A stretch of DNA of 64,000 nucleotides from Brachynemurus nebulosus (lineage: Eukaryota; Arthropoda; Insecta; Neuroptera; Myrmeleontidae): the NCBI GenBank assembly GCA_035578155.1, contig JAPWDM010000020.1, positions 8,841,269 to 8,905,268 on the forward strand, written 5' to 3'. Shown here piece by piece: positions 12,501-46,821 of this stretch. How positions within the stretch are numbered: the first letter of the stretch is position 1; each line of letters starts with the position of its first letter. The translations under genes and the position numbers were made by a program. Below the pieces are notes generated by a model. That model saw only the letters and a program-made list of their open reading frames with translations. It was not told the origin of the DNA and did no database searches.

Positions 12501-12533
12501 AATAACACATCACCAAAAACCCTCGATATAAAT

Positions 12534-12962
12534 ATCAAAACAGCGATTTTTAAAGTTTCTCTCTATCTGTCTATCTGTCTGTCTGTCTATTCACGCCTCA
12601 CGCAAAAACTACTAGACACATTTTAATGAAATTTGGTGCGATGATAACTTATTACCTGGGTCAACATCTAGGATAATTTTTACTCCAGAAAAATAGAAAA
12701 ACCATTTTGAGCATGTACACAGATTACGTAAAAATTACTGGACGGATTTTAATGAAATTTGTATTACCTGGGTCAACATATAAGATACTTTTTATTGCGG
12801 TAAAATGTTTCTTTCCCTTAAGAAAATATAAAAACCATTTTAAACATACGCATGCATTACGTAAAAATTATTGTTGTATGCAAGTTCTGCATAATTATTA
12901 CACATACATATATACTTCTCATTGATTTCATAACAATGCGTTGCGTGAACGACGTCGCAGGT
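12534..12962 (-). repeat. interspersed repeat family copy 1 (minus)
   Basis: Reverse-oriented copy of the family also seen at 15545-16170 and 18508-19138. On its sense strand it starts near GCGACGTCGTTCACGC. It contains degenerate ~130-bp internal subrepeats (GAATGAGACATTTTCC-like and CCAAATTTCATTAAAATCCG-like motifs). It ends in (GACA)n, visible here as CTGTCTGTCTGTC. Such ends are common in insect non-autonomous repeats; the class is not resolved. Confidence 0.8.
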
Positions 12963-14641
<1,679 letters not shown>

Positions 14642-15087: not shown

Positions 15088-15544
15088 TCTAAGAAGAATG
15101 GGAATAGAGTGGGAAAGTAGTGATAGCGAAGAGTTCGAGGGACAGATGATTCTCTACTAGGAATACAGTCAAGGTTGCCAGATTGGGCGGATTTCAAACA
15201 TAACTTGCGCTCATAATTTGTATTGGGCGATTTTCCACAATTTGGGCTATTTTCAAAGTAGTCCATATGATAACTAAAGATGTTTAAATTTTTAATATTT
15301 TTCTTTATTTTTGAAAATTTCTTATTTTGTTCTTGGTTCATTTCAATTCTTTTAACTTTTACTACATATATACTTGTTGTGCCGTTTCTATTTTATATAT
15401 GGAAATAGCTCTATTGTTTGCAGAAATTCGAGAAATACATAACCATTATTGATAGCCAGATTTTCAAATGTTTTAAGTTTATTTACTGTACGGTATTATC
15501 CGTATTAGAAGTGTAAGTATCATTAGAAGAAAATTAGTTTAATC

Positions 15545-16170
15545 TAGCTGTACACACGACGTCGTTCGCGCCCGCATTGTTATCAACTCTATGAGAAGTA
15601 TATAAATGTAATAATTATACAGAACTTGCATATAACAATAATTTTTACGTAAGGCATCCACATGCTCAAAATGTTTTTTTTTATTTTCCTGGGGGAATGA
15701 GACATTTTCCCAGAGTAAAAAGTATCTTAGATGTTAACCCAGGTAATAAGTTATGACCACAACAAATTTCATAAAAATCCGTTCAATACTGTTTGCGTAG
15801 GTAATGTGTGCAGATGCTCAAAATGATTTTTCTATTTTCCCGTAGGAATAAGATATTTTGCCGGAGTAAGAAGTATCTTAAATGTTGACCCAAGTAATTA
15901 GTTATCACCAAACCAAATTTCATTAAAATCCGTTCAATAATTTTCCGTAATGTGTGCACATGTTAAAAATGGTTTTTCTATTTTTCCGTGGGAATGAGAC
16001 ATTTTCCCGGAGTAAAAAGTATCTTGGATGTTGGCCCAGGTAATAAGTTATCATCATACCAAATTTCATCGAAATCCGTTCAGTAGTTTTTGCGTGATGC
16101 GTGAACAGATAGACTGAGAGACGGACAGACATACAGAAAGACCGAAAGACAGACAAAAATTTTGAAAATC
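15545..16170 (+). repeat. interspersed repeat family copy 2 (plus)
   Basis: Begins near ACACGACGTCGTTCGCGCC and holds three to four ~130-bp subrepeats. Each has AAAATG followed by a TTTTCTATTTTCC block, a GGAATGAGA block, GGAGTAAAAAGTATCTT, ACCCAGGTAATAAGTTAT and a CCAAATTTCAT...CCGTTCA block. It ends in (GACA)n. This copy has the most complete tail of the three in the window. Confidence 0.85.
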
Positions 16171-18249: not shown

Positions 18250-19138
<889 letters not shown>

Positions 19139-19140
19139 TA

Positions 19141-20058
19141 GGCTATGACAGAGCGGGAGCACCGTAGAACCCCAATTTTCAGGACTACTTTTTGACAGTG
19201 TTAAGAACCGTGTAATTTGGGATCCTATGGTACCTCATGTATGAACCGGCACGTCCCGAGTACATGTATCAAAATTTGTTGTTGACATTTGACCCCACAC
19301 TCGCTCATACTGTTGGCCTTGAAATTCCTAAGACATGAGTCATCACCTCAACAACCAAATTAATTCAAGTTCACCCATTATGCGTCATTACAATTTGTTC
19401 ATCACGATTTGGATTTGTGTTAGCCCATTACCCGCCAGCACTAGCATGGTTTTTGAATGCAAACCTAACGTATGCGCAGACTGAATTTTAGTACACGACG
19501 CATGCGCAGAGTGAATTTTAGGCTACAAATTGATAGCTGGGGTACACTACCGCGTCAAAAATGCGGGGAATACTCTGACTCGACGGTAGCCTCAAACTTT
19601 TGACACCGTACTGTACTTAAATTTTTGGTACACTACCGTGTCAAAAGTGAGAACCCCCTGACTAAAAAGGTATCCGATCACTTTTTAAAGTCTACTGTGC
19701 TTATTACATGCAAACCTTGGCCTTTAACCTCGCTTAACTTCGTTATCTTTAACGAATAAAGAAAACATTTGACTCGGCCGCTAACGATAAATTTTGTGGG
19801 GGCACTGTATCGAGCGTTGGACACTGGTTAAGATTTTAAAAATAACTTCGGACTTTGGGGTCCAGATTTCTGACCACCACCGTACTACCGAAAATCGGGA
19901 GGTAGCTAACGATAAATTTTGTCGAGGCACTGTATCGAGCGCTGAACACAGGTTAAGATTTTAAAACTAACTTCGGACTCTGGGGTCCAAATTTCTGACC
20001 GTTACTGTACTACCGGAAATCGAGTGTCGAGTGTACCTCAGGGGAATTTTTCGTATAT
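19141..20058 (+). repeat. left TIR of 12-kb element with internal ~126-bp tandem duplication
   Basis: Aligns to the reverse complement of 30197-31110 with scattered substitutions. It contains palindromic blocks built from TACACTACCG(C/T)GTCAAAA (19550-19650). It also has two ~126-bp tandem units (about 19778-19903 and 19904-20030) sharing GCTAACGATAAATTTTGT and CACTGTATCGAGCG. The inner end is GTACCTCAGGGGAATTTTT. Confidence 0.85.
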
Positions 20059-20100
20059 GTGTCAGCACTTTATAAGATTAAGTTTTTTATTTTAAGTTCT

Positions 20101-20515
20101 GTTTGTTTATATAAGATTTTTTTAGATGACTATTTAGGATGATGTAATTTCATGATCGGTTACATCATAGTCGGTGAGGATTTTTATTTAACAACAAGTC
20201 ACTATTTGTTAGTTCCAGGAATTAAAAATAAATTTGTTTACATTAATGTAATCATAAATCATTAATATAGCTGTGTGTTTATTTAAGATTTTGCTGACGC
20301 ATACTCGGATATTTTTTCAATTTGTTTATATAAGACATGTTTTTAATTTTAAAAATGTTTATTTAAGATTTGGATGACTGGCAAATTTGTTTGTTGGATT
20401 TATGGTTTGGAATTTTTAATTTATGGTCTGATAATAATCGGGGGTTTTTTCAATTTGTTTATTTATATAGTTTGATTTTAAAAATATTTATTTAAGATTT
20501 TGATGAGTCATCAGT
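20101..20515 (+). repeat. dispersed direct repeats just inside left TIR
   Basis: The motif GTTTAT(T/A)TAAGATTT recurs near 20104, 20277, 20330, 20357 and 20487, sometimes followed by TGATGA or GGATGA. It lies between the TIR and the first gene promoter. Spaced near-identical motifs in this position could bind a replication or transposition protein, though ordinary AT-rich decay cannot be excluded. Confidence 0.5.
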
Positions 20516-20646
20516 CCCTTTATTAGGTTTCAAATGCGAAATAATTTTCTCGGAATTTATGGTTTGACATTTGACCTTCGGTTATTTGTGTTGTAAAAAT
20601 TCTGCGGCAGCATTTTTTATGATTCCCCTCCAGAATTTTTCGAGTG

Positions 20647-20682
20647 TATAAAAGCTAAGAGTTAATTTTCGTGAAATCATTC
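20647..20682 (+). promoter_or_regulatory. insect core promoter: TATA box and Inr
   Basis: TATAAAAG at 20647-20654 is followed, 32 bases from its first T, by the A of TCATTC (20677-20682), an insect initiator (TCAKTY). Start codon 20794 lies 115 bases further on. The spacing is canonical for RNA polymerase II. Confidence 0.7.
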
Positions 20683-20793
20683 AATCAAACGAAAGTAAGA
20701 AAAAAGTTTCTAAATCAATTCAGTACTGTATATTCTAAGATTAAATATAATCAAACGTAAAAATAATCTACGTTTATTTTAACAAAATAAAAA

Positions 20794-21078
20794 ATGGAAA
20801 AGTTTCAAAAACTGAAGAATAGATACAAACCACTTATTAAAATCAGTTATCTTAAAGTGGGTGAAACGCATTAAGAGTACAATTTTCGACGAGTTAAGAC
20901 AAAGTATGGAGATAGAGTTATTGTAGAACTGGAAACACATGCGTTATTTCTACCAGCTCGATTTAATCAGCTAACTGATGAAGATTTAAGTGAACTGTGC
21001 AAACAGAAACCATTCGTTGTTAGCCGAGGCAAGATTGATGGGAATTCTTACAACATCGATTTGGTTAAAAATCAGTAA
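20794..21078 (+). pseudogene. small beta-rich protein (94 codons, one internal stop), mobile-element associated
   Basis: The ATG at 20794 opens a frame of 94 codons ending at TAA 21076-21078, interrupted only by TAA at codon 27 (20872-20874). The N-terminus is Lys/Tyr-rich (MEKFQKLKNRYKPL). The middle has alternating hydrophobics typical of beta strands (FRRVKTKYGDRVIVELE), then FLPARF and LTDEDLSEL, and a strand-like C-terminus. From memory, small proteins of this pattern (KTKYG..V.VEL...FLP.R...L) recur in insect genomes, and I infer an OB-fold-like nucleic-acid-binding protein. This is a fold guess, not a demonstrated function. A TATA/Inr promoter lies upstream. Confidence 0.6.
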
Positions 21079-21083
21079 AATAA

Positions 21084-21332
21084 AAAGAAGAAGCAGAATT
21101 ATGTCATAAACCACAACATAATGAAACCAATAATTTCTTTGGAATGCAATATCAACTATATGCAGTACCTGAATCTGTTACAGGAAAGATTAAATAAGTT
21201 GGGAGTATTCGTGTCGAGGAAGTCATTCAAGTCAATATCAATATTTACACACAGCATTTACCATTGGAAACTCTCAGTGCAAGATGATTGGATTACGGAT
21301 TCCTTATAGCTCTGGAACTTAGTAGCATTTAA
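21084..21332 (+). pseudogene. unknown protein remnant, two stops
   Basis: A different frame from the preceding gene stays protein-like for about 82 codons, with stops at 21195-21197 and 21285-21287 and an end at 21330. Readable blocks are NNFFGMQYQLYAVPESVTG, VGSIRVEEVIQVNINIYTQ and LDYGFLIALELSSI. The alternating polar/hydrophobic composition looks coding, but I do not recognise the family. No credible start codon is seen; it could be a downstream exon or the shifted C-terminal part of the upstream gene. The overlapping open frame at 21121-21309 is a shadow. Confidence 0.4.
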
Positions 21333-21776
21333 GTATACTTATCAAATCATTTCACTTATTGTATAATGAAATATTGAAATATTCCAAATATTATATTACA
21401 TATAAATTACTTAATTTGAAATACACAGTATTGAATTTATTTTCAAAATGTCATAATTCTGTATTTATTGTATGAGTAACTTACAGTAATATATAATTAT
21501 TTCTAAAAATATGTTATAATTCTAACATGTTATAATTATATATTTTTATTATTATGAATAAATAAAAAAATATTTGAAAAACAAGGTGTTTGATCTTTTT
21601 AAATATACCTATGTATATCTGCTATCTAAAAATTTTAAGGAAAACAATTTTTAAACTTATTACATGAAAAAACAAAGTACTTATTACAATTTTTAGTTGA
21701 AATTTGTAAAAAAATTTCTATCATCCTAACTTATGGTTATAAAGAAGAAGAAATTTTGTTATAAGAAATTTGTAAG

Positions 21777-22299
21777 TATATACGTAGGTTATGGTATAAG
21801 TCTTATCGTACTGCTCTTAAACATAACGCGGTATCAATTTATTATAAAGTATTCCCTTCTTATTGTTTTAGTACAAAATATAAACTACGTAACTGATTCG
21901 TCTATCTTTGATTATTGCTTCCCTCACAACTTCAATGTTTGTTTTTAGTTATGACTTCTGTCGGCCAGCCTGAACGAGAATCGTCTTCTAAATTAAATAA
22001 CCTACGCTTAAAATTTAAGAACTATCTCTCAGTAGTTCTTAAGGATGGACAATCCTTACCAAATACCTGCTCCATTTCCTCTTTACACTGTTTGGCAGAT
22101 AGTAAGCGATGAAAGTTGGAAACGACTCTATTATAGCGATCCATTTAAGAAATCACCGATTAAATTGTGTTAATAGCTAATAGTTTATATTTTATACTTA
22201 GACAATATAAAGAGGGTACTTTTTGATAAAGTAACAAATTGACACCGCGTTATATTTAAATGCAGTATGACAAGACTTATACTGTGACCTACATACAAT
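21777..22299. repeat. foldback with ~120-bp arms inside 12-kb element
   Basis: Arms 21777-21896 and 22180-22299 are imperfect reverse complements (shared blocks GTATAAGTCTT, ATAACGCGGT and ACAAAATATAAACTA or close variants). The loop of about 280 bp contains the 42-aa frame at 22045. The long hydrophobic open frame at 21733-21948 lies largely on the left arm and is not called. Confidence 0.65.
22045..22173 (+). CDS. possible 42-aa small protein
   Basis: The ATG at 22045 opens 42 codons to TAA at 22171. It starts MDNPYQIPAPFPLYTVWQIV and continues with SDESWKRLYYSDPFKKSP. The Pro/aromatic-rich non-repetitive composition differs from chance AT-rich frames, which are mainly Ile/Asn/Lys. It overlaps in another frame a 54-aa stretch ending near 22112. 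No family is recognised and expression is unknown; it may instead be one exon of a larger gene. The surrounding foldback suggests the segment may be separately mobile. Confidence 0.3.
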   Translation: MDNPYQIPAPFPLYTVWQIVSDESWKRLYYSDPFKKSPIKLC

Positions 22300-22674
22300 C
22301 ACATATGTAAAAATATCTATACGTATTATATGTCAGCTGATAATAATTAAACAGTTACCGGCTGTTTAACTTTTTCTTTATTAGTTATAAATGATCTTAT
22401 TAAATTTAATAAAAAAATTTTTAAAAAATGTTCAACTTACACTTTTTCTATGATTGTAAATGGGAATGAAATGGTTTGATTTAATGGAATTCTACACTGC
22501 AGTTTATATAATTTATACATAAAATTTCCTCTGTACTTCATACAAGATGCATCATGAAAGATTTTTTAAAAATTGAATTATTAAAAAATTAAGTTAAAAA
22601 TTCTTTGTAGTTGGTTAAATAGATACTTTATCATAAAATATAAAAGCTCACTTTAGAAAATATATACACGTATT

Positions 22675-23031
22675 GCTATTTTTGCAAGTCTCAAAGCTGG
22701 ATCTTTGAATATATAGGGACAGGAAAGCATCGAATACCCGAACATCTCTCAACTGAAGCGTTATTTAAGTGAATGTGAACCTTTAGAAAGGTTAAAATTT
22801 AAAGGTTCAAGAAACAATTGTTTAGAAGTGAATGCTGCTTTTTTTAAAGAAATAACATTCTCAGACATAACTATTCCTATGAAATTTGATATTTTTCATC
22901 GAAATCAACATGTTTGACCATCAAAGCCTTCAATTTTATCTGAAATATTAATAATTCCAATTAATTCGGATAATCAATACTCTACTTACAAAACATATAT
23001 AATTTTTTTTTCAGTGAAATATGGAATATAA
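22675..23031 (+). pseudogene. unknown protein remnant (~119 codons, two stops)
   Basis: One frame remains coherent from about 22675 to TAA 23029-23031, broken by TAG 22714-22716 and TGA 22915-22917. Readable blocks are ISQLKRYLSECEPLERLKF, NNCLEVNAAFFKEITFSDI and IPMKFDIFHRNQHV, then PSKPSILSEILIIPINSDN. There is no frameshift across the region, which argues for real coding ancestry. A TATAAAAG box at 22639-22646 matches the one upstream of the 20794 gene. Alternatively the CAG before 22723 may be a splice acceptor. Family not recognised. Confidence 0.5.
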
Positions 23032-23780
23032 AATTGTTCACACTCTGTTGTTAATTTCAAGTAATATCTAATAATGAAACTTAATAGAATTCAAATTTTG
23101 ACAGGTGTTCCAATTATAATAATATTAAAATGCAAATGTTGTTACCATTACACTAGATATCCGTTAGTAATTTTAGAATTGTTAAAGAATCCTAACTTTG
23201 CCAAATCTATAGTAACCCTTACTTTAAACGAATTATTCAATAACGTATGAATAAATTAATATGAAACTCATAACCAATTTTCCCTATAAGAAAGTTTATA
23301 TGTTTATATATACTTGAAACACTCTGTATATACTTATATTAAAAATATGTATGTACATAGTCAAAATTAGAAATGTATTTCTTATTCTTGAGATCTTAGC
23401 ATTCTGTAATCTTAACAATAAAGAAATATGACGTTGATTATTTATAATGAAACTACATAATATGTATAAGAACATAACTCATAATCATAAATATATATAT
23501 TTAAAAATTGCTAATTGTTTAGATTTACATCCAACATACGTATCAAAACTGCTAACTCGTAAATTATTTAAGACAATAACACATATAATTATTGTATAGC
23601 ATAAATTTAGCAATATGTATGTATGTATGTATTCAAGCTTTTGGAGTAATCAGTATCTCAATTTTTTAAACTTTTAGAAAACCCAATATTAACTATGATT
23701 TTTCTTTTAATATAGCACTTTTAGGATATCAATACACCTTGGATTTTCTCTGATTTTAAAACTCATACACCAGTATCTCT
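23032..23780. other. intergenic within 12-kb element
   Basis: AT-rich with no coherent coding remnant. A short GTAT microsatellite is at 23616-23630. It precedes the nested foldback. Confidence 0.5.
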
Positions 23781-25705
23781 ACAAAGGGCATAGCCGGGTA
23801 AGATAGGGAAAACGGCCCTTGACGCAAAATTGATTGCTTTTATAGGAAATAATACTTCTTAGCCCCAGATACATTCCTGCCAAATTTCAACCCTCCGAGG
23901 CTAATAGTTTATGAATACACAAACGGACAAAAATTTTCAAAAAAAATTTTTTTTGACGAAATTACTGAACCAATTTATTTGAGTTTAATATATATTGTGT
24001 ACCCACCTTAGACGAAGTAACGAAAAAAAAATTAACGTTATATCCCTCTATTATACTAATTTTTTTAAATTTTTAAATTTAAGAAAATTTTTTTTTGGCA
24101 CTTAGGCGTTAGCGACACCCACCATTTTTTGTTCAATAATTTGTCTCTTAGTACTCTATAACATATATTTTTATGGAAAAATTTTAGTTGGTAGAACATA
24201 GTAATATTTCAATACAAATGCATGCCATGTTCTGTACTACATATATTACTTATGTATAAAAAGGACCATAAAGTAAAGCATCTGCCTGATTTCTAAAACA
24301 CAGTAGAACTCTAAGGAGTGCAATAAAATGTTCTCTTCCCCCCTGAGTTGCAGTTCTTGGAGTTAATGTGACGATCTAAAAAAAATATATATTTTGAGCT
24401 GTTATAAAAAATATGTTTTAACTTGCTAAAAAATAATTTTCAAGGTTAATTTTACCATGAATCTGAATATTTGAATGAAATCAATAAAATTACCTCAGCA
24501 TACTTACTAATTAAAATTATATCTAACTCAACAAAAATTATAAGTTTTAGAAACTTTATTTAAATAAAGATACTAATAATAACAATAATACGTCTTAAAT
24601 GTTATATTGCTTTAATAATAATAAACATTAACTTAATAAAATGGAACAAAAAACTTCAACAATGTATAGTAATAACAACAATCCGGCTAAAACCTGTTGT
24701 AGTTATTACATGTACATATAACTAACTTGAAGAAAGTAGTGTACAATTGTACGCAATATGTAGCTCGTCCCTCTCACTTGATGTTTTTGTTGCACTTCTT
24801 AAGGAGGTGCAGAAAGTGAATTTTTTCTGAAATAAAATTACATACGTTCATAACTACGACAAACAAGCTGAGACAAACGTCTATCTTTATCTGCCGTCTG
24901 CCTTATTTTGTTAACACGATGACGGGTCATGGGGAATTATAACGAAATGACCAACTGGTATACTATTTTGACAGTTAATCAACTTTGTATGAAATTGTTG
25001 ACATCGTAAGACGTGGTGTATGAGCTAACAAAGTTTCACTTGACGTCTTACAAAGGAAAAAACTCTAACAAAAGAGAAATCAATGTCTATTTTGTTTTAT
25101 TGATAAAAAAAGACAAACGGCAGATAGTGTTGAACTTTTGTAAATTTAAACTAGTTTATCGTAGTTATGAACGTATGTAATTATATTATTTTAGAAATAG
25201 GGTAGATATTTTACTTTATAGTCCTTTTTATACATAAGTAATATATGTAGTACCGAACATGGCACGCATTTCTATTGAAATATTACTATGTTCTACCAAC
25301 TAAAATTTTTCGATAAAAATATATGTTATAGAGTACTAAGAGACAAATTATTGAACAAAAAATGGTGGGTGTCGCTAACGCCTAAGTGCCAAAAAAAAAT
25401 TTTCTTAAATTTAAAAATTTAAAAAAATTAGTATAATAGAGGGATATAACGTTAATTTTTTTTTCGTTACTTCGTCTAAGGTGGGTACACAATATATATT
25501 AAACTCAAATAAATCGGTTCAGTAATTTCGTCAAAAAAAATTTTTTTTGAAAATTTTTGTCTGTTTGTGTATTCATAAACTATTAGCCTCGGAGGGTTGA
25601 AATTTGGCAGGAATGTATCTGGGGCTAAGAAGTATTATTTCCTATAAAAACAATCAATTTTGCGTCAAGGGCCGTTTTCCCTATCTTACCCGGCTATGCC
25701 CTTTG
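23781..25705. mobile_element. 1.9-kb foldback element with ~0.5-kb inverted arms
   Basis: The outer ends are ACAAAGGGCATAGCCGGGTA at 23781 and its reverse complement ending at 25705. The arms (about 23781-24290 and 25195-25705) are nearly identical, indicating a recent insertion or recent homogenisation. A second, smaller inverted pair lies inside (24830-24920 and 25085-25195, sharing ACATACGTTCATAACTACGA). No reading frame suggests a transposase, and a target duplication is not obvious (left flank CTCT, right flank TCGA). It is non-autonomous by appearance. Confidence 0.85.
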
Positions 25706-26321
25706 TTCGAGGTGATTATTTTATTTAGGTTTTTAAAATATACATATTGTCACTTAATATTGTAAACATCTAATCCATGTATTTGAACAAGTAGCTTTAT
25801 TTTAGGATATATTATAAAGTTTCAAGCTAAAATTTTAGAAAGTTTGGCAAATTAGCTTTTTCGTTTAAAATCAAATTTTTTATGTTTTTAATCATTTTTT
25901 AAAAACTCAGTGTATATAGATAGAATTTATTTATCTTAAAGTAAGCATAGTTATTAGGGAACTCAGAATTTTTAATCAATAAAATTGGTTTTTAATCTTT
26001 TTAAAAAATTTCTCTGAATAAGAATTGATTGAAACGAATGTGTTTTAATATCTACATATTGTCAAGAGATTAATATGCTGTTTATTTAACATTGAAATCA
26101 AGAATGTATGAAAAAGTAATGAATTGATGATGTATACAAATTTTGGAAGGCTAAAAACATATTTAATGATTAACTAAATAGTTTACCAATATGTATTCAT
26201 TTTAGATATGCATATACATATTATAGTCATGTACATAGTAACAATTTATAAAATATGTATATAGGGTGTGTTATGAAATATGTTTTTAGAAGTATCACAT
26301 ACATCATATTTTTTATACAGT
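25706..26321. other. intergenic within 12-kb element
   Basis: No coding remnant recognised. AT-rich spacer between the foldback and the next gene remnant. Confidence 0.5.
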
Positions 26322-26681
26322 ATGGCAATGAAAATTGACAACTTAGAGAATTATCATAATTATTTCAAAGTGATGGTTGTAGATTAAATCTATTTCCATG
26401 AATTGGCGGTTGGTGAACCATCGACATTAACACGGATTTCACACGTTGAAGATATATTTCTGACTCATCCTTATTTGTATACAAAAGTCAGAAATTTCGA
26501 TATGTTATTATACTTAACAAAACAACTATTGAAATATGATATTTGGGTGCAACATCTGTATGCATATATGATATCCGAATATGCACAACGAATTTGTCAG
26601 GTATGGGATCAGTTACCTGAAAACATGAAACAACTAAGTTCCGTTGTTATTGAATATATAAACAAATCATACATCTTTTAA
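26322..26681 (+). pseudogene. unknown ~119-aa protein with one stop codon
   Basis: The ATG at 26322 (MAMKIDNLENYHNYF) runs in frame to a TAA at 26385-26387. The same frame then continues open to a stop at 26679-26681, with blocks HELAVGEPSTLTRISHVEDI, THPYLYTKVRNFDMLLYLTK and ISEYAQRICQVWDQLPENMK. The composition predicts several amphipathic helices and is unlike random AT-rich sequence. No catalytic motif or zinc site is visible and I do not recognise the family. It lies on the same strand as its upstream neighbours and convergent with the C2H2 gene. Confidence 0.55.
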
Positions 26682-26684
26682 TAT

Positions 26685-27226
26685 TTATTTATTGTAAAAA
26701 AATTTCATATACATTTATTATAAAAATATTTCATATGCATACATTTATTGTAAAAAAATATTACATATGCATTTATTGTGAAAATATTTTGTATTCATAC
26801 TTATATTTTAAAAATAAAGAACAGTAAGTATTTACATATATGTGTTATTTATTTGAAGAAAACCTTTTTATCTTACAAAATTAAAAAAAAGACAATATAA
26901 AAATAAAATATGCACTTCAATGATAGATAACTGCTGCTTCTTATACGGTGGTGTTCTTCAAAATTCAGTAAATTTTTATTTATAGTCACAATCACTAGCA
27001 TCTTTATAAGATTTATATGAGCTATATAGAATATGAATATATAGAATATTTCTTAATCAACAGTAGTTTCTTTTAAAGCAGTTAACTATTTCGTTAAAGC
27101 TTCTCAATCTTCAACGTTGTACTTTCCTCTAGACCTCAAATAATTTTATATATTTGTTTTCTAGTCTCTGAAGTTAGATATAGAAGTTACAATTTAACCA
27201 ACAAAGTATCAAGATCATATTTTATC
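26685..27226. other. intergenic between convergent genes
   Basis: The first part has degenerate direct repeats of a CATATGCATTTATTGTAAAAA-like unit (26700-26790) and an AATAAA signal near 26813 for the upstream gene. Nothing coding is seen. Confidence 0.5.
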
Positions 27227-27775
27227 TTATTCAAAATCCTCTGAGCTGTTGCATTTGAAACGCTTAGCAAGTAATTCTTGCTCCATTAAATTGACTAGAC
27301 AACTCACTGCTATTGGTTTATTAGAATTCTCACCTTTGTTTTGAGTTTCTTTGACTAATAAAATATTCAAAATAGTTTCTAAAGCCGTAGTTAATTTAGG
27401 ATTGATAACAATTTCACTGTCAGAAATGGTTAAAATTCTGTTATCAGACTCATCGCTTCTAGGTGTGTAAACATTACCCTGATTTCTTAAATTATCAAGT
27501 TTAGTTTGAACTGCTTTTGATGTAATTTTAATTCTTTGCTTAAGTGGATTTTCCTCAGCTATACTATTTTTAGATCCATCGTCAACATCATTTCTCCCCG
27601 TATCATAACTTAGCAAGTTATCAACCATGCTTACTACTTCCTTTTTCAGCGGATTAAAAGAATAACTATTTTCAAATCTGTTTGGTGAGATTCTTCGCAT
27701 ATGTAAATTTCTTATATGACGTGAAAGAGAATCTTTTCGCGAGAAACTTTTAGAGCACTGCATGCACTCAAACAT
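27227..27775 (-). CDS. single-C2H2 zinc finger protein, intact, 182 aa
   Basis: An intact minus-strand frame starts at ATG 27773-27775. Residues 1-25 form one classical C2H2 finger (C4, C7, H20, H25; FECMQCSKSFSRKDSLSRHI). The remaining ~155 residues are acidic/Ser-rich with a hydrophobic helix near 134-155 (LTTALETILNILLV) and an acidic tail. A single N-terminal finger is unlikely to give high DNA specificity alone; it could regulate or recruit proteins to the element. A TATATAAG box lies upstream on the same strand (27839-27846). It diverges from the 28474 gene across the tandem-repeat region. It is the longest uninterrupted frame among the element's genes. The role is inferred from the motif only. 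Confidence 0.75.
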   Translation of the reverse strand: MFECMQCSKSFSRKDSLSRHIRNLHMRRISPNRFENSYSFNPLKKEVVSMVDNLLSYDTGRNDVDDGSKNSIAEENPLKQRIKITSKAVQTKLDNLRNQGNVYTPRSDESDNRILTISDSEIVINPKLTTALETILNILLVKETQNKGENSNKPIAVSCLVNLMEQELLAKRFKCNSSEDFE

Positions 27776-27838
27776 TATAACACATGTGTAAAGCTCAACT
27801 GGTCTTACAAGATTAATTCAGATATGTGTTAACGATTA

Positions 27839-27846
27839 CTTATATA
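27839..27846 (-). promoter_or_regulatory. TATA box for the C2H2 gene
   Basis: TATATAAG on the minus strand, about 64-71 bases before the start codon, places transcription start near 27810 with a short leader. Confidence 0.55.
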
Positions 27847-27906
27847 CTCCACCACTGCAACACAGCTATCACATTTGAGTTGCTTATTTTGCTACATGAA
27901 GTAGCA

Positions 27907-28004
27907 GTCGAACCGAAATAGTGTGCGGTCGAACCGAAATAGTGTGCGGACAAAACGAAATTATGTGCGGTCGAACCGAAATAGTGAGCGGTCGAACCGA
28001 AATA
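27907..28004 (+). repeat. 21-bp tandem repeat array 1 (iteron-like)
   Basis: About four to five units of GTCGAACCGAAATAGTGTGC plus one base, with substitutions (one unit GACAAAACGAAATTATGTGC). It lies in the divergent region between the C2H2 gene and the 28474 gene. Confidence 0.85.
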
Positions 28005-28025
28005 GACTAACTTACAAATTTTTAC

Positions 28026-28278
28026 TCATTTTGCTCCAAGGAGTGACTCATTTTGCTCCCGGAGTGACTCGTTTTGCACTCGGAGTGATTCACTTTGCTT
28101 CCGGAGTGACTCATTTTGCCCACGGAGAGACTCATTTTGCTCCCGGAGTGACTCATCTTGCTCCCGGAGGGACTCATTTTGCTCCCAGAGTGACTCATTT
28201 TGCTCTAGGAGTGACTCATTTTGCTCTCGGAGAGACTCATTTTGCTCCCGAAGTGACTCATTTTGCTTCCGGAGTGAC
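28026..28278. repeat. 21-bp tandem repeat array 2 (iteron-like, twelve units)
   Basis: About twelve units of GAGTGACTCATTTTGCTCCC plus one base. The sequence differs from array 1, but the period is the same. Each unit contains TGACTCA, a 7-bp match to an AP-1-type bZIP site. Because 21 is a multiple of 3, all frames stay open: the minus strand (28313-28026) reads as heptads NESLREQ, which would be a coiled coil if translated, and the plus strand reads FAPGVTH. I treat these as repeat by-products, with the minus-strand heptads noted as a possibility. Confidence 0.85.
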
Positions 28279-28360
28279 TCATACACCTTATCATGGGTAA
28301 AGAGCTCATACACCTTATCATGGTTAAAGGGCTCATATCCATTATCATGGTTAAAGGGTA
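28279..28360 (+). repeat. ~27-bp tandem repeat array 3
   Basis: Three units containing CTCATACACCTTATCATGG then TTAAAG, directly abutting array 2 and ending at the TATA box of the next gene. Confidence 0.8.
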
Positions 28361-28365
28361 TAAAA
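28359..28365 (+). promoter_or_regulatory. TATA box for the 58-aa gene
   Basis: TATAAAA lies at the end of tandem array 3, 109 bases before the ATG at 28474. No strong Inr was seen at the expected +1. Confidence 0.5.
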
Positions 28366-28473
28366 TAGTTGAACTTACACAGAATATTGTCTATTTACCG
28401 GTGATTGTCAAAGAGTTAACATTTCGTTCGCTAAAAATTATACTTTCGTGGTAAAACAATTACATTTCGAACC

Positions 28474-28650
28474 ATGATAATTTACAATTCAAAGCAGTCC
28501 ACCGCTAGCCAACATAGCAAAGAACTTTCGAAACCTAAGATCATTAAACGTAAAACATTTAAGCAACAACGCATTTCACCCGAAAATTTAGCATTCCTTA
28601 AATCACTAGGTCTTAAAGTGAAAAAAACATGGTACTCACCAATGTGCTGA
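28474..28650 (+). CDS. 58-aa Lys-rich protein, intact
   Basis: The ATG at 28474 opens 58 codons to TGA at 28648-28650. The first half is Ser/Lys-rich and basic (KPKIIKRKTFKQQR), then ISPENLAFLKSLGLKVKK and a short WYSPMC end. A LAFLKSLGLKV-type helix-turn tail is something I recall seeing at the ends of small proteins in insect mobile DNA, but I cannot check this. The basic half suggests nucleic-acid or nuclear association. A TATA box and three tandem arrays precede it, and the 28814 gene follows in the same orientation. Confidence 0.55.
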   Translation: MIIYNSKQSTASQHSKELSKPKIIKRKTFKQQRISPENLAFLKSLGLKVKKTWYSPMC

Positions 28651-28761
28651 ATATTATTAACAGTTTGTAATTTGATGGTAAACTAGCAAGAGCAATTAGT
28701 AGCCATTTTCGAATACATTCCACAAATTAACTAACTATACCCACCACTTTTAATTATTCCA

Positions 28762-28796
28762 TATAAAGTTGTGGATTGGGTGAATAATTTCAGTTC
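28762..28796 (+). promoter_or_regulatory. insect core promoter: TATA box and Inr
   Basis: TATAAAG at 28762-28768 and TCAGTTC at 28790-28796, with 30 bases from the first T of TATA to the A of the initiator. The start codon at 28814 is 22 bases downstream. This is a textbook insect arrangement. Confidence 0.75.
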
Positions 28797-28813
28797 TACG
28801 GCGGCGGTAAAAA

Positions 28814-29299
28814 ATGGCGTTTCTTGATATACAAGGCTATCAAGGAGCTAACAATTAATTTTATTTTAAAGAAGTTGGTATCGCTGCAGAAAATTCAGAT
28901 GAAATATTACATCTTATATTCGACGCACCGTTTGATTTCAAGGAGTTTCCGAATAAATATCAACGAGTTGCTCTTTGGCTTTGCCGAAATTAGCATGGGA
29001 TACCTTGGTCGTATTGATTTATTCCGTACAAAAAACTTCATACCATATTTAAACCTATATTAAACAAGTTTGATATCATATACGTCAAGGGCAGTGAAAA
29101 GAAGAAATGGATTTCAAATTTGTTTGATGACACCGAAAACCAGCCGTGGATTTTGAATTTGGAAGAAATATTTGATGTACTGAAGATTTCCATTCTGCGA
29201 GATGAATATTATTCAAGACGTTGTATATTTCATTCAGATAAAATTTGTTCATTAGAAAATTGTATTCTTTTAAAAAATTTTTATATGGAAAATAAATAG
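28814..29299 (+). pseudogene. 161-codon protein of an invertebrate mobile-element-associated family, three stops, no frameshift
   Basis: The frame from ATG 28814 to TAG 29297-29299 is interrupted only by TAA 28856, TAG 28991 and TGA 29015. The N-terminus is MAFLDIQGYQG, followed by a FKEVGIAAEN strand, FPNKYQRVALWLCRN, HGIPW, FIPYKKLHTIFKPILNKFDI and the conserved-looking IYVKGSEKKKWISNL. The C-terminus has a His/Cys pair block CIFHSDKICSLENCILLKNF. From memory, proteins with DIQG...VKG.EKKKW and a terminal C..H....C block occur in many invertebrate genomes without assigned function. A nuclease/RNase H-like fold is a guess from the opening strand. A clean TATA/Inr promoter precedes it and an AATAAA lies at 29354-29359. 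Confidence 0.6.
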
Positions 29300-30196
29300 A
29301 TTTTAAGTAATATATAGATTTAAGCAATTTAATTTCTGTATACATATTCTGTAAATAAAATTTTTAAAAAAATTTGTGCGTTTTATTATTACCCTGAATT
29401 CCCCTATTTTTTAGAGCAAGAAGTTTCTTTCGTTAACCTATAAAAGTAATTAAAAACATCTAATCATATTTATTATTCTAATTGAAGAGCATATTTCATG
29501 ATAGATCCTGTATAAAAATACACCCGTATACATGCATTTGTACATATATTATATTATATGTGTGTGACGTAAGTTTTAAGATAATATTCTATAAATTTTT
29601 ACCTCAAAACTACTAATTTATAAAAAAAAAAAAAATTAGCAAAACTCAATTCCCCATCTTAATTTTTATATTAAACAACATAGTTAAATTATTGCAATTA
29701 AAAACCAAAAAATTTGAAATTTTATTCTGTCTAAAATATTAAATAAATGAGCCAAGTACGAATACATATAAATATGAAGCTAAATATTTACAAACAGTAC
29801 ATAGTTTTGCTAACTAAACAAATTTTTTATGTTGATAATTTATTTTATAGTTTATTCATCTGTGTGTTATAATAAGATTATGTATAAGATGAGCCTTCGT
29901 TTGATTTATAAATTATGCTAGAAATAAGTTTGTGCTATACTCAAATTCTTAAATGTTTTGCTCTTCACCTTAAAATTCTAAGAAATTTTGTTAATTAAAC
30001 AAAAAATTACTAACGGTGTAGGTTATATGTTAAAATTCATGAGGTACTAAATTAGGTTACACTTCTTTAAATTCGAAATAAGTATGTTTTTGCAGTCTGC
30101 TGTCAAGATCTGCTAAAATAAACATTTAGATATTGGTTGTTTATTTATTTTAAAACTGATAAAAATTCCTTGAACTAAGAAGATTTTCCAAGGTTA
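29300..30196. other. intergenic within 12-kb element
   Basis: Apart from the AATAAA at 29354-29359 serving the upstream remnant, no coding sequence or strong repeat was seen before the right TIR. Confidence 0.5.
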
Positions 30197-31110
30197 AATA
30201 TACAAAAAATTCCCCTGAGGTACACTCAACACCCGATTTCCGGTAGTACAGTAGCGGTCAAAAATTTGGACCCCAGAGTCCGAAGTTAGTTTTAAAATCT
30301 TAACCAGTATCCAGCGCTCGATACAGTGCCTCGACAAAATTTATCGTTAGCTACCTCCCAACTTTCGGTAGAACGGTGGTGGTCAGAAATTTGAACCCCA
30401 GAGTCCGAAGTTATTTTTAAAAACTTAACCAGTGTCCCGCGCTCGATACAGTGCCCCCCACAAAATTAATGGTTTCTTTATTCGTTTAAGATGACGCAAT
30501 TAAGCGAGGTTAAAGGCCAAGGTTTGCATGTAATAAGCACAGTACGCTTCAAAAAGTGATCGGATACCCTTTTAGTCAGGGGGTCCGCACTTTTGACACG
30601 GTAGTGTACCAAAAATTTAAGTACAGTACGGTGTCAAAGGTTTGAGGCCACCCTCGAGTCAGGGTATTCCCCACATTTTTGACACGGTAGTGTACCCCAG
30701 CTATCAATTTGTAGTCTAAAATTCACTCTGCGCGTGCGTCGTGCACTAAAATGCAGTCTGCGCATGCGTGTTAGGTTTGCATTCAAAAACTGTGTTAGTG
30801 CTGGCAGGTAATGAGTTAACACAAATCCAAATCGTGATGAACAAATTGTAATAACGCATAATGGGTTAACTTGAATTAATTTGGTTGTTGACGTGATGAC
30901 TTATGTCTTAGGAATTTCAAAGCCAACAGTATGAGCGAGTGTGGGGTCAAATGTCAACAACAAATTTTGATACATGTACTCGGGACGTGCCGGGTCAAAG
31001 GTCAATCCATACACGAAGTACCGCAGGACCCCAAACTATACGGTTCTTAACACTGTCAAAAAGTAGTCCGGAAAATTGGGGTTCTACGGTGCTCCCGCTC
31101 TGTTATAGCC
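30197..31110 (-). repeat. right TIR of 12-kb element
   Basis: Reverse-complement partner of 19141-20058, including the tandem duplication, the GTACACTACCGTGTCAAAA palindromic blocks and the terminal CCCGCTCTGTTATAGCC. The open frames at 30634-30822 and 30939-31187 run through this repeat and are not genes. Confidence 0.85.
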
Positions 31111-31112
31111 TA

Positions 31113-33981: not shown

Positions 33982-35381
33982 ATGCAATCAGCCAGTGGCG
34001 GCTCAGATAATGTAACAAGCAGATATATTTATCTACTAGTTGCATCAAATACGCCTAAATCACTGTTCGATGAATTAAGTGAAGTAAACAGCGATCAACA
34101 GTTACCTGATACATGAGCCATTAGAAAAATAAGGGATAAACTTTCTAATTATAAAAGCCAAACCGAAAAATTTGAACAAGAAAAACAGAATGCTATAAGA
34201 AGATTAAGCACTTCGTCGCAGGCCTCCATTCCAGATAACGACCAACCGAATAACAAATCGGTGATGGAAAATAATACAACAGCCAGTCAAAAACCCAGTT
34301 GGCAAGGAAACGACTTTGTTGTAGTATCCCGTAAAAAAAGAGAAGTCCAGATGCTAAACAGAGAAGAGTTAAGCAGAAGGAAAATTCGGAGACGGAGGTC
34401 ACTACCAACAATCGCTTTGAAATTCTCCAAAGTGTTTCTCAAGACCCAGATATACCAACCGAAAGCTTGTCCAAAGATAAAAAAGAACCTGTGCAACCTA
34501 TTTTTGTAACCAATGTTATTAATTTTAAATCATTTGAGCAGGAACTAAATTCGAATGGCTTTACTAATAAATGCTTGTTTAAAGTTATGAATAAGCAAAT
34601 AAAAATTATACCAGTAGATGTTTCTACATACCGCGCGTTGATCACATATTTTAAATCACGTAATGTAAATTATTACACTCATCGCTTAAGACAAGAACTA
34701 CCTTTTCGAGTTGTTATGAGGAATGTTCATCACTCCACCACACAAGAAGAAATAGCCGCTGATCTTGCCGAACTTGGATACGTTGTAGAAAACGTATCCA
34801 ATATAAAACATGCTAAGACCAAAGAACCTTTACCTTTGTTCTTTATTGATCTGAAGAATAATGAAAATAACAAATCAATTTACCAGGTCACAAAAATGGG
34901 AAATAAAATTGTAAAATTTGAACCACCTAATAAAAAAAGGGAAATTCCGCAATGTAAAAGATGCCAGAGATTTGGTCACACCCAAAACAACTGTGGACGT
35001 ATTTATAGATGTGTAAAGTGTACTGGAAATCACCAGACAAGTGCGTGCGAGAAAAAAAGCAGAGATATCCCTGCTGTTTGTGTTAACTCTGGTGAAAATC
35101 ATCCAGAAAATTATAAAGGTTGTATCGTTTACAAAAAACTTTTAGAAAAACGTTACCCACCATTAAGAAGAAAGCAGCCTACTGAATCCAACTTGATCTC
35201 ACGAGCTCCATCTCCGAACTACGTGAGAGGAAACTTCACCTATGCACAAGCAGTTGGAGATTTGCCCTCCACTAACATTATTGAAGCCGCCACTGAACAT
35301 AATACAAACCAAGATTTAATCACTTTTATGAAGCAGTCATTTTCGGAGCTGAAAGAAATGTTTCGAGATCTTATGAAATAA
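33982..35381 (+). pseudogene. Jockey ORF1 (Gag-like RNA-binding protein), one nonsense codon and one frameshift
   Basis: The ATG at 33982 starts an N-terminal Ser/Gln-rich region, with TGA at codon 45 (34114-34116). The frame resumes until an A-run at about 34333-34339, where a one-base indel shifts it. From there the frame stays open to 35381. The C-terminal part has a Pre-C2HC-type domain (from LPFRVVMRNVHH) and zinc knuckles: CKRCQRFGHTQNNC (CCHC), CVKCTGNHQTSAC (spacing variant) and a third block CVNSGENHPENYKGC whose second Cys is Ser. The family protein binds element RNA in the ribonucleoprotein particle. Confidence 0.85.
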
Positions 35382-35435
35382 AATAGCGTGATGGTTAATC
35401 TATTAACAGCGCTGGTTGCTAAAATGAAATAAAAA

Positions 35436-38123
35436 ATGGCTCTATCCATAAATATCGTTTTATGGAATGCAAATGGTTTGTTAAACCGTCATCTGGAACT
35501 TGAAACATTCCTTCAAGATCATGACATAGATATAGCCCTAATATCCGAAACGAGATTTACTCAGAGAAGTTATCTTAAAATAAGAAACTATACTGTGTAT
35601 GATACGAAACATCCTAGTGGTAGAGGCCACGGTGGTACAGCGATTATAATTAAAAACAGCTTAAAGCATCACGAGCTACAAAAATATAACGAAGAATACC
35701 TTCAAGCAACAAGCGTAGTGGTGGAAGATTGGATTGGACCAATAACTTTTTCTGCTGTGTATTGTCCTCCAAGATATGCAATCAGCCAGGATATGTTTCA
35801 AAATTTTTTCAACATCCTTGGAAATCGATTTATCTCAGGTGGTGACTACAATGCTAAGCACACGCATTGGGGTTCTAGACTCATCAACCCTAAAGGTAGA
35901 AATCTTCTAAAAGTTATCCATGAAAGCAACCTGAATCATCTGTCTACGGGTGAACCAACTTATTGGCCATCTGATTTAAATAAAATTCCAGATTTGTTGG
36001 ACCTATTTGTTACGAAAAATATGTCTAATAGATACATGGAGATAAAGTCGTGTTTTGACTTATCATCGGACCATTCACCTGTTCTGCTTACAGTTAGCAC
36101 TAAATTAATCCATAAAGAGAAAACACATGTTCTGTTCAATAAGCACACGGACTGTGATTACTTTCGAAATTATATTGACAAAAAAATTACCTTAAAAACA
36201 TCCTTAAAGTCAGAATTAGAATTAGATCAAGCAGTGGTAAATTTTACTAATATCATTCAATCTGCTGCTTGTGAATCCACTCCAGACATTGTCAATAATT
36301 CAGGTGTCAAAGTTACCTCACCAGGTACAGTTAAGGACTTGATTTTAGAAAAACGGAGGCTAAGAAGAATATGGCAACAGACCAGGTCTCCAGGAGACAA
36401 AAATCGTTTTAACAGAATACCCCAGAAGTTAAAGCGATTACTGAATAAATTAAAACAGGATGCTCTTGAAGATTATCTCGAAAATCTTTGCCCAACTGAA
36501 GCATCTGACTACTCCCTCTGGAAAGCTACTAAGCACATTAAACAGCCACAACAACAAATACCACCACTTCGTGGAAATAATGGAAGCTGGGCAAAAAGTG
36601 CACGAGAAAAGGCAGAACTTTTTGCTGAAACTCTATCTGAAGTTTTTCAAGCCAATCACGGAGACAACTTAAATATTGAAGAAACTCAACTTTTAGAAGC
36701 ATCTCCAGAGCCAACTGTCTCAGTTGAACCTTTTTCGCCAAAGGAAATTAAAAGATTGATCTGGAATGAATTAAATATAAAGAAAGCTCCTGACTATGAT
36801 CTTGTCACAGTTAGGATTCTAAGAGAATTGCCTAATAAAGGTATTATGATGATAAATTTAATTTTTAATGCCATTTTAAGACTAAAATATTTCCCTGCTA
36901 TTTGGAAATTAGCTCAGATCATCTTAATACAAAAGCCGGGGAAGCCAGTAAATGAGGTGACGTCGTACAGACCAATCAGTTTACTCCCCGTTTTATCCAA
37001 AATGTTCGAAAAGTTATTTCTCAGAAGACTGCATCGAGTCCTCGATGACCTTAAAATTATTCCAGATCATCAGTTTGGTTTTCGCGCAAAACATTCAACC
37101 GTCGAACAAGTTCATCGTGTAGTTAATACGATCAATCGCTCTTTTCAAGAAAAAAAATATTGTACAGCAGCTTTTCTCGACGTGAGTCAAGCATTTGACA
37201 AAGTATGGCATACTGGTTTATTGTATAAATTAAGGAAAAATATTCCTGAATTATTTTACTTAATACTGAAATCTTATTTGTCAGATCGTTACTTTCATGT
37301 AAAGTTTCAGAGTGAAATATCAGAAATGTTTCCAACCCGTTCTGGTGTACCACAAGGTAGTGTTCTAGGGCCTATTCTTTATCTTATATATACTGCAGAT
37401 CTGCCGGTTGATGAAGAAAATACTACTGCAACATTTGCTGATGATACTGCTATCCTAGCTACTGATAAAGATCCAAATGTTGCATCACAAAAGTTACAAT
37501 CTAGCCTGCGTCGAATACAGGAATGGTTACATAAATGGCGTATTCGAGTAAATGAAACGAAATCAGTGCAAGTTACATTTACTACGAGAAAAGGAACCTG
37601 CCCTGCAGTTAGTTTGAATGATGTAGTGTTACCATTAGCTACTGAAGCTAAATATCTAGGTATGCATCTAGATAGAAAACTAACATGGCGTAAACATATT
37701 TGGACTAAACGCAAGCAACTAAATGTTAAGTTTTCTAAGTACTATTGGCTTCTATGTCATAAATCAAAGTTGTCCTTAAGAAACAAAGTGCTAGTTTATA
37801 AAAGTGTTATCAAACCAGTATGGACTTATGGTATTCAACTTTGGGGTACTGCTAGTGTTAGCAATATTGAAATGTTGCAACGATTTCAGTCTAAAGTGCT
37901 ACGAGCCATAAGTGCTTCCCCGTGGTACGTGCGTAACGATGACATACATCGCAGTCTTCAAGTGCCCACAGTGCGTGAGGAAATAGTACGATACAGTGAT
38001 AAATACATTCATCGCCTAGAAAATCACCCTAATGTGTGTGCCCTTAACTTACTTGACAATAGTGACTCTTTGTATAGACTCAATCGACAGAATATTTTAG
38101 AATTAAGATATAGATTTATTTAG
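35436..38123 (+). CDS. Jockey ORF2: apurinic-type endonuclease and reverse transcriptase, intact
   Basis: 895 codons without interruption. The N-terminal ~220 residues are an exonuclease-endonuclease-phosphatase domain: NIVLWNANGL (Asn site), ISETRF (Glu), SGGDYNAKHTHWGS (Asp/Asn) and SSDHSP (Asp-His). The reverse transcriptase follows, with SYRPISLLPVLSK, FLDVSQAFDKVWH (first catalytic Asp), GVPQGSVLGP and FADD at about residue 667. A thumb/connection region with KYLGMHLDRKLTW and a C-terminal domain follow. It nicks target DNA and copies element RNA by target-primed reverse transcription. All visible catalytic residues are present and the length fits the clade. ORF2 starts 54 bases after the ORF1 stop. 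Confidence 0.95.
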   Translation: MALSINIVLWNANGLLNRHLELETFLQDHDIDIALISETRFTQRSYLKIRNYTVYDTKHPSGRGHGGTAIIIKNSLKHHELQKYNEEYLQATSVVVEDWIGPITFSAVYCPPRYAISQDMFQNFFNILGNRFISGGDYNAKHTHWGSRLINPKGRNLLKVIHESNLNHLSTGEPTYWPSDLNKIPDLLDLFVTKNMSNRYMEIKSCFDLSSDHSPVLLTVSTKLIHKEKTHVLFNKHTDCDYFRNYIDKKITLKTSLKSELELDQAVVNFTNIIQSAACESTPDIVNNSGVKVTSPGTVKDLILEKRRLRRIWQQTRSPGDKNRFNRIPQKLKRLLNKLKQDALEDYLENLCPTEASDYSLWKATKHIKQPQQQIPPLRGNNGSWAKSAREKAELFAETLSEVFQANHGDNLNIEETQLLEASPEPTVSVEPFSPKEIKRLIWNELNIKKAPDYDLVTVRILRELPNKGIMMINLIFNAILRLKYFPAIWKLAQIILIQKPGKPVNEVTSYRPISLLPVLSKMFEKLFLRRLHRVLDDLKIIPDHQFGFRAKHSTVEQVHRVVNTINRSFQEKKYCTAAFLDVSQAFDKVWHTGLLYKLRKNIPELFYLILKSYLSDRYFHVKFQSEISEMFPTRSGVPQGSVLGPILYLIYTADLPVDEENTTATFADDTAILATDKDPNVASQKLQSSLRRIQEWLHKWRIRVNETKSVQVTFTTRKGTCPAVSLNDVVLPLATEAKYLGMHLDRKLTWRKHIWTKRKQLNVKFSKYYWLLCHKSKLSLRNKVLVYKSVIKPVWTYGIQLWGTASVSNIEMLQRFQSKVLRAISASPWYVRNDDIHRSLQVPTVREEIVRYSDKYIHRLENHPNVCALNLLDNSDSLYRLNRQNILELRYRFI

Positions 38124-44904: not shown

Positions 44905-45975
44905 TGCATCCGCAGGACAATTATGTATCTCAGATAACATAACTTGTATTTATCTAAAATAGTTTGACTCTGCAATAGTGAAAAAATTTTCAAAATCGAT
45001 CAGTTCTTTTATTTCGGACACTTCTGGGTCCGATGGACTCTGTCAGACCTTACATAACGTAATCTATACCTATCTAAAATAGTTTAGCTCTCTAACAGCG
45101 AAAAAATTTTCAAAATCGGTCAGTTAATTTATTTTGCGCTTTTAAAATCCCAGTACCCTGGCCGACCTCATACATGATATGAACTATATCCTTCTAAATT
45201 TTTTATCTCTGTAACAGTGAAAAAATTTTCAAAATCGGTCACTTATTTCATTCTTGACACCTTTGGATTCTATGGACCTATATATGGACATAACGTAATC
45301 TATATCTATCTAAAATAGCTTGCCTCTGTAACAGTGAAACAATTTTCAAAATCGATCGGTTAGTTTATTTTTGACACTTTGGGGTCCCATGGACCCTGCC
45401 GGACCTTACATAATGTAATCTATATCTATCTAAAATAGCTTACCTTTGTAACAGTGAAAAAATTTTTAAAATCGGTCGGTTATTTTACTTTTGACACTTT
45501 TAGATCTCACGGACCCTAGCGGACCTTACATGAAGTAATCTATATCTATCTAAAATGGTTTAGCTCTCTAACAGTGAAAAAATTTTTAAAATCGGTCGGT
45601 TAATTTATTTCTGACACTTCTGGGTTCCATGAACCCTAGCGGACCTTACATAACGTAGTCTATATCTATCTAAAATAGCTTAGCTTTTGGACGGTGAAAA
45701 AATTTTTAAAACTGATCAGCTAGTTTATAGTTTACAATTATGGGATCAGTGGACCCTGGCGGGTCATATAACTTACGGCAGTTCATGAGAGCCTTGCGGA
45801 CATTATTTAATAACTTAACTAATTCAAATACTTTAGCTTACTAACGGTGAAAAAATTTTCAAAATCGATTGAATAGTTAATTTTTGGCATTTTTAGGTCC
45901 CCAATAGCCTCACGGATCTCACATTAGCTTTCTAACATTAATGATTATTAGTGAAAAAATTTTCAAAATCGATCC
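44905..45975 (-). repeat. 120-bp satellite, reverse orientation
   Basis: About eight to nine monomers marked by GTGAAAAAATTTT(C/T)AAAATCG every ~120 bp and TCTATATCTATCTAAAATAG. Monomers here are more divergent from one another than in the left array, and the strict two-type alternation is not evident. Confidence 0.9.
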
Positions 45976-46562
45976 AGTTCTTAAAAATGTTTTTCCTGGT
46001 ATACAAACATAATTATTATGTTATCTTTCTATAATATTTAATAATATTATATTATGACATTACGTTCATTATCTTGTTCATTTAAAATTCAATAAAAAAA
46101 ATAAAAAAAATCTTCATTACATATGCTTAAAATATCTGGTTAATTTTATTTTTAAAAAATGAGGCAGATATGGATACATAGATTTTAAATAACTACCATT
46201 TGTTTTACGTAAAAAAATGAAATTTTTCTATATTTTATAAGGAATTAAGACAGAAATATAAATTACTTATTAGACTGACAAAGAGAGCAAAGTGAGGACA
46301 AAGTGAAAAATTACGCTTTTCTCGAAAACTACTTAACATAAAAAGAAGATTATAAGAACATTTTCTTCATAGTTTCCTTCTCCTTTTCAACGATGTAAAA
46401 ATCGAACTGTCTTATGATAGGGTCGAATGATAAAAAATAGCGAGAAAACCTACTTTTAAGCATCTGATGTGTCTGGTTAACGAACTTAGCCGAGCCAATT
46501 CGGAATGCAGTTCTCACACAAAATTTCATAAGTATTAAACGTTTAGTTCGAGAGGTATCGCG

Positions 46563-46621
<59 letters not shown>

Positions 46622-46821
46622 TTTAGTGAATATCATTTTCGTATTCTAGGGACCTCAGAACATATTTCTGTTATAGTCTTGGCCTCAGATTGCGTAATGG
46701 GAGCGGCCGTAATAGCTGATTTTCGAGTTTTCGAAATTCGCTAAAATGAAATTAAAAACAACTTATTTGCATGAGAAATTCATTAAGTATTAATTTTGTG
46801 TCACTTCAAATATTTTTATTA

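What the first reader, a model, noticed from the sequence alone, without database searches (positions are those of the whole stretch)
19141..31110. 12-kb element with 0.92-kb TIRs carrying an unrecognised multi-gene cargo
Seen: long imperfect terminal inverted repeats with matching termini, TA at both outer edges, and at least eight small coding regions between them, several with TATA/Inr promoters. Known: Polinton/Maverick and virus-like elements combine long TIRs with multi-gene cargo, but carry polymerase, integrase and capsid genes that I do not find. Inference: this is a decayed member of an undescribed or poorly described class of large insect DNA elements or an endogenised virus, or a non-core derivative of a known one.
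Basis: partly seen in the sequence, partly recalled or inferred. Interest (0 to 1): 0.88.

Follow-up and report, generated by a model that had tools for sequence, protein, structure and literature searches.

The report
Decayed 12-kb inverted-repeat gene island
A 12,000-base stretch of this genome (likely an insect's) is framed by two matching 0.92-kb inverted repeats and is probably a decayed mobile or virus-like DNA element that would have relied on enzymes supplied by another element; the part of its interior that was scanned gave no match to known polymerase, integrase or capsid families, and only a weak match to a transposase in a likely later insertion.

Summary
The repeats are real: 19139-20058 and 30198-31112, inverted, 837 of 901 aligned bases identical, 1272 bits against at most 44.6 in 50 simulated regions. 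Their outermost eight bases match and TA stands at both edges, but no longer target-site duplication was found. Two frames have coding signal after allowing for a search of the region: A (20794-21078, one stop) and C (27227-27775, intact, a C2H2 zinc finger). E is suggestive; B and D are not separable from chance; F was not tested that way. One ORF is a 21-bp tandem array; two stretches are likely nested transposons. Added here: two 21-bp arrays, one of 12 units around GACTCA, between the divergent starts of C and D. No relative of any searched part was found, but the collections that answered appear mostly microbial and viral, and the whole-genome search did not complete (17 requests). Most likely this is a decayed, non-autonomous mobile or virus-like DNA element. 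Polinton membership is not supported. Whether it is a new class cannot be decided without other copies.

The parts
19139..20058 (+). left terminal inverted repeat, 920 bp; outer end TAGGCTATGACAGAGCGGG; contains a 118-bp direct duplication (19780-19897 / 19905-20022) and a 53-bp imperfect palindrome (19596-19648)
   Evidence: the palindrome folds with z -4.3 against 200 shuffles, while the outermost 122 bases do not fold better than shuffles (z +0.75); GC 0.427 against 0.277 inside
30198..31112 (-). right terminal inverted repeat, 915 bp, with a matching internal duplication (30232-30343 / 30357-30468) and palindrome (30589-30641)
   Evidence: GC 0.433
20794..21078 (+). frame A, 94 codons, one in-frame stop at codon 27; open piece 20875-21075 predicted as three strands, two helices, two strands
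   Evidence: codon score 15.1, 0 of 60 simulated regions as good; AlphaFold2 single-sequence mean pLDDT 70.7 for the best of five models, 43.2 for the worst; no significant structural match
22717..22914 (+). possible coding piece F, 66 codons
   Evidence: best of its six frames, score 6.6, 0 of 1000 simulated single frames as good, not corrected for searching the region
26322..26681 (+). frame B, 119 codons, one in-frame stop at codon 22; open piece predicted helical at low confidence
   Evidence: best of six frames but 31 of 60 simulated regions as good
27227..27775 (-). frame C, 182 codons, intact, one C2H2 zinc finger at the start
   Evidence: Pfam zf-C2H2 E 5.2e-06, 27.1 bits against cut-off 25.2; 0 of 300; codon score 24.7 against a maximum of 15.8 in 200 simulated regions
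27904..28008 (.). tandem array of five 21-bp units, four of them with GTCGAACCGAAAT, between the starts of C and D
28030..28281 (.). tandem array of twelve 21-bp units around GACTCA (ten exact), in the same gap; 7 exact TGACTCA of 14 in the whole 64-kb window
28474..28650 (+). frame D, 58 codons, intact, divergent to C
   Evidence: score 11.2 for 28495-28641 against a 95% level of 11.1; 11 of 60 simulated regions as good
28814..29299 (+). frame E, 161 codons, three in-frame stops (codons 15, 60, 68), no frameshift; TATA and TCAGTT 28 bases apart upstream
   Evidence: codon score 8.4, 5 of 60 simulated regions as good
21781..22295 (-). likely nested mariner-like remnant with arms of about 110 bp, 76% alike (not part of the original cargo)
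   Evidence: inverted arms; weak HTH_48 (Mos1 transposase) match, E 0.01, 16.4 bits against cut-off 24.1; translation
23781..25706 (.). nested fold-back element, 518-bp arms 97% identical
   Evidence: no target duplication found

Best explanation
The 12-kb stretch between two matching 0.92-kb inverted repeats, with two frames that carry coding signal and no polymerase, integrase or capsid match in the scanned interior, is likely a decayed, non-autonomous mobile or virus-like DNA element that would have been copied and inserted by enzymes supplied in trans. Shown: the paired ends, the frames and their stops, the arrays between the divergent starts of C and D, and two nested inverted-repeat stretches. 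Inferred: the ends served as recognition and replication termini. C, D and their neighbours would be small Pol II genes, and the GACTCA array, which resembles AP-1 (TRE) sites as I recall them, would act as a two-way enhancer or as protein-binding iterons. A might be a single-stranded-DNA-binding protein; that reading rests only on a modest-confidence model without a structural match. After insertion the copy would have decayed at about the neutral rate.
For: Paired ends far beyond chance with matching outer termini. The ends are GC-rich (0.43) against a 0.28 interior and about 0.30 flanks, which suggests a separate unit and not an inverted duplication of local DNA (inference). A and C have coding signal. 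Frames A, B and E carry 1, 1 and 3 stops and C and D none: five over A-E against 2.8 expected from the divergence of the ends, of the order expected if they were open when the ends were identical. C and D start away from each other across 21-bp arrays. The interior holds a likely mariner remnant and a fold-back element, so it is probably not recent. No polymerase, integrase or capsid match in six frames of the scanned interior at E 0.1.
Confidence: 0.5

Rival explanations
1. Two copies of an unrelated 0.92-kb repeat inserted independently in opposite orientation, and everything between them is ordinary repeat-rich host DNA.
For: No whole-element target duplication longer than TA; the window is full of other repeats; most small frames inside are not secure.
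Against: Neither copy alone has a convincing duplication of its own (none for the left; the right copy's best score of 6 is reached by 25 of 200 random pairs). A solo repeat with its own sharp ends remains possible, since both copies also share their inner edge, which does not speak against this rival.
Confidence: 0.2
2. An oversized cut-and-paste DNA transposon (TA-inserting) whose transposase was lost and whose interior is captured host genes.
For: TA at both edges; long inverted repeats with a C2H2 gene inside; Pack-MULE-type gene capture is known (PMC6431247, passages seen).
Against: No transposase match in the scanned interior apart from the weak one in the nested mariner-like remnant; ISL2EU duplicates AT, not TA (PMC4482050, passages seen), and an AT reading fails here.
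Confidence: 0.2
3. A Polinton/adintovirus-like element that lost its core genes, that is, a decayed internal-deletion or non-core derivative of a known family.
For: Long repeats and several small frames in both orientations; a terminus beginning AG is one of the possible readings.
Against: No PolB, integrase, protease, ATPase or capsid match in the scanned interior; 12 kb including about 2.4 kb of nested stretches, against 15-25 kb typical (PMC6431247 section 10); the 6-bp duplication (recalled) fails, 1 of 6 at the AG boundary.
Confidence: 0.1

Closest known systems
Polinton/Maverick elements and adintoviruses
   Same: long terminal inverted repeats, several small frames in both orientations
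   Different: no PolB, integrase, protease, ATPase or capsid match in the scanned interior; shorter; no 6-bp duplication (recalled feature)
Bidnaviruses (PMC4061559, passages seen)
   Same: terminal inverted repeats; arthropod hosts (recalled)
   Different: no PolB, helicase or jelly-roll capsid match; this copy lies among other repeats in genomic DNA
Large cut-and-paste elements with captured genes (Pack-MULE type; PMC6431247, passages seen)
   Same: genes enclosed between inverted repeats, enzyme in trans
   Different: no MULE transposase match; no 9-bp duplication (recalled length; best 4 of 9); the only Pfam match above cut-off among the frames is a single C2H2 finger
Baculovirus homologous-region enhancers and origins (recalled; the one search for them returned no paper)
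   Same: tandem short units with AP-1-like motifs
   Different: no baculovirus-type gene recognised; motif likeness only

Membership tests
Polinton/Maverick | protein-primed PolB and retroviral-like DDE integrase (PMC6431247 section 10) | tested here: not met
   six frames of 20059-23779 and 25707-30197, X at stops, Pfam E up to 0.1: none; a loss by decay is possible and no positive control was run
Polinton/Maverick | long terminal inverted repeats | tested here: met
   920 and 915 bp
Polinton/Maverick | 6-bp target-site duplication (recalled) | tested here: not met
   1 of 6 bases for the AG boundary, 2 and 3 of 6 for the two others
Polinton/Maverick | length typically 15-25 kb (PMC6431247 section 10) | tested here: not met
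   11,974 bp including two nested stretches of about 2.4 kb
Tc1/mariner | TA duplicated at the insertion site (recalled) | tested here: inconclusive
   TA at both edges, but indistinguishable from the repeat end
Tc1/mariner | DDE/D transposase (recalled) | tested here: not met
   only a weak HTH_48 match inside the nested stretch 21781-22295
ISL2EU (PHIS superfamily) | AT duplication; DDE-THAP transposase and YqaJ protein (PMC4482050, passages) | tested here: not met
   flanks AT and AC at that boundary; no such domain in the scanned interior
MULE / Pack-MULE | 9-bp target-site duplication (recalled) | tested here: not met
   3, 1 and 4 of 9 for the three boundaries
Bidnaviridae | PolB, superfamily 3 helicase, jelly-roll capsid (PMC4061559, abstract passage) | tested here: not met
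   no Pfam match in the scanned interior
Any family, by relatives | homologous cargo or ends elsewhere in insects | not testable with these tools
   The genome search unanswered 17 times; no relatives in the large protein set or viral contigs, which appear to hold few or no insects

The most novel reading that the evidence does not exclude
This is one decayed copy of an undescribed class of insect virus-like DNA element: 0.92-kb ends, its own set of small early-type genes (a compact beta-rich DNA-binding protein, a zinc-finger regulator and others) run from a central two-way enhancer of AP-1-like iterons, replicated by a partner's polymerase much as a satellite virus is.
Probability: 0.15. Interest if true: 0.75.

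Novelty: new variant of a known kind. Interest (0 to 1): 0.45.

Why it matters
If other copies share these ends and genes, it would add a multi-gene, polymerase-lacking class to the known large animal DNA elements and give sequence handles (the ends and frames A, C and E) for finding its autonomous partner. If not, it is one more decayed repeat-rich region with a striking but ordinary origin.

Tried and rejected
Rejected as genes: the ORFs on both strands over 27904-28300 (a tandem array whose 21-bp period keeps frames open), the coding-like stretch 21953-22141 (likely nested mariner remnant) and the piece 21079-21306 (not the best of its frames).

Papers: nine searches. Six returned listings; some returned none. 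I saw passages of PMC6431247, PMC4061559 and PMC4482050 and section 10 of PMC6431247. Nothing that I saw described this element, but most subscription papers are not held.

Recalled, not tested: E and A remind me of repetitive uncharacterised proteins in aphids and other arthropods. No call supports that.

Full report
The observation. A pair of inverted repeats lies at 19139-20058 and 30198-31112. They align over 901 bases with 837 identities, 46 transitions, 18 transversions and three gaps; K2P is 0.075. The pair scores 1272 bits, while 50 first-order Markov simulations of the region gave at most 44.6. The outermost eight bases (TAGGCTAT) match on both sides. The repeats are GC-rich (0.43) against 0.28 inside and about 0.30 in the flanks. 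Each holds a tandem pair of a unit of about 112-118 bp and a 53-base imperfect palindrome; the left copy's palindrome folds with z -4.3, whereas the outermost 122 bases do not fold better than shuffles. TA stands at both outer edges, but a palindromic dinucleotide cannot be told from the repeat itself. No other target duplication was found for the whole element, and none that exceeds chance for either repeat alone. No further copy lies in the 64-kb window.

The cargo. Against simulated sequence, stop counts alone single out only frame C (0 of 300). Stretches as open as A, B, D and E arise in 294, 167, 290 and 181 of 300 simulations. A codon-content score trained on unrelated retroelement ORFs in the window, and corrected for searching the region, adds A (0 of 60 simulated regions as good). 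E is at 5 of 60, D at 11 of 60 and B at 31 of 60. For A-F the named frame is the best of six; a further piece, 21079-21306, was not and was dropped. The score has a known failing here: the tandem array gets the highest value of all, 31.0, ahead of C at 24.7. C is an intact 182-codon frame with one C2H2 finger (27.1 bits, cut-off 25.2). D is an intact 58-codon frame. A and B have one stop each and E has three. With half the K2P of the ends as the age, 2.8 stops are expected over the five frames and 5 are seen; about 3 indels are expected, and no frameshift is seen in frames that were chosen for continuity. This is compatible with neutral decay of once-open genes, but it does not prove coding.

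What does not belong. 21781-22295 is a likely mariner remnant: it has inverted arms and a weak Mos1-type HTH match (E 0.01, 16.4 bits against a cut-off of 24.1) on the minus strand. 23781-25706 is a fold-back element with 518-bp arms at 97% identity, closer than the 93% of the outer ends and so probably younger (inference). The ORFs over 27904-28300 come from tandem arrays.

The central hub. Between the start of C (minus strand) and the start of D (plus strand) lie five 21-bp units, four of them with GTCGAACCGAAAT, and twelve 21-bp units around GACTCA. Ten of the twelve keep GACTCA exactly, and seven are exact TGACTCA, out of 14 such sites in the whole window. A third short repeat of about 27 bases follows, seen by eye. 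TATA-like boxes lie 71 and 115 bases upstream of the C and D start codons, although 1.1 per 250 bases is expected by chance, and neither has an initiator match at a fitting distance. TGACTCA is the AP-1 site as I recall it. A two-way enhancer or an iteron-like origin is my inference.

What it is. Six-frame Pfam scans of 20059-23779 and 25707-30197, with X at stops, show no polymerase, integrase, capsid, packaging ATPase or protease match at E 0.1, and no transposase beyond the weak one in the nested remnant. The repeats and the fold-back element were not scanned in this way, and no positive control was run. Polinton features other than the long repeats are not met. ISL2EU and bidnavirus features are not met. 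The best-supported account is a decayed, non-autonomous mobile or virus-like DNA element mobilised in trans. The main rivals are two independent insertions of one repeat, a large cut-and-paste element with captured genes, and a gutted Polinton relative.

Limits.

Noticed in passing
34467-38123: A non-LTR retrotransposon with two long open frames (304 and 895 aa; gag-like and endonuclease-reverse transcriptase by eye).
   Followed up: no
46869-49512: Frames resembling a Penelope-like or related reverse transcriptase with a GIY-YIG-like C-terminal part (by eye from the translations).
   Followed up: no
1436-3824 and 44934-46746: Long tandem-repeat arrays with offsets near 120 and 240 bp, present in opposite orientation at two places in the window.
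   Followed up: no
18510-19014, 15544-16107, 12523-12997: A repeat family with units of about 110-150 bp ends some 125 bases left of the element and recurs upstream in both orientations.
   Followed up: partly
19473-19522: Inside the left end, an imperfect direct repeat around ATGCGCAGAGTGAATTTTAG, and several GTACACTACCG/GTACTACCG motifs that may be protein-binding sites (by eye).
   Followed up: no
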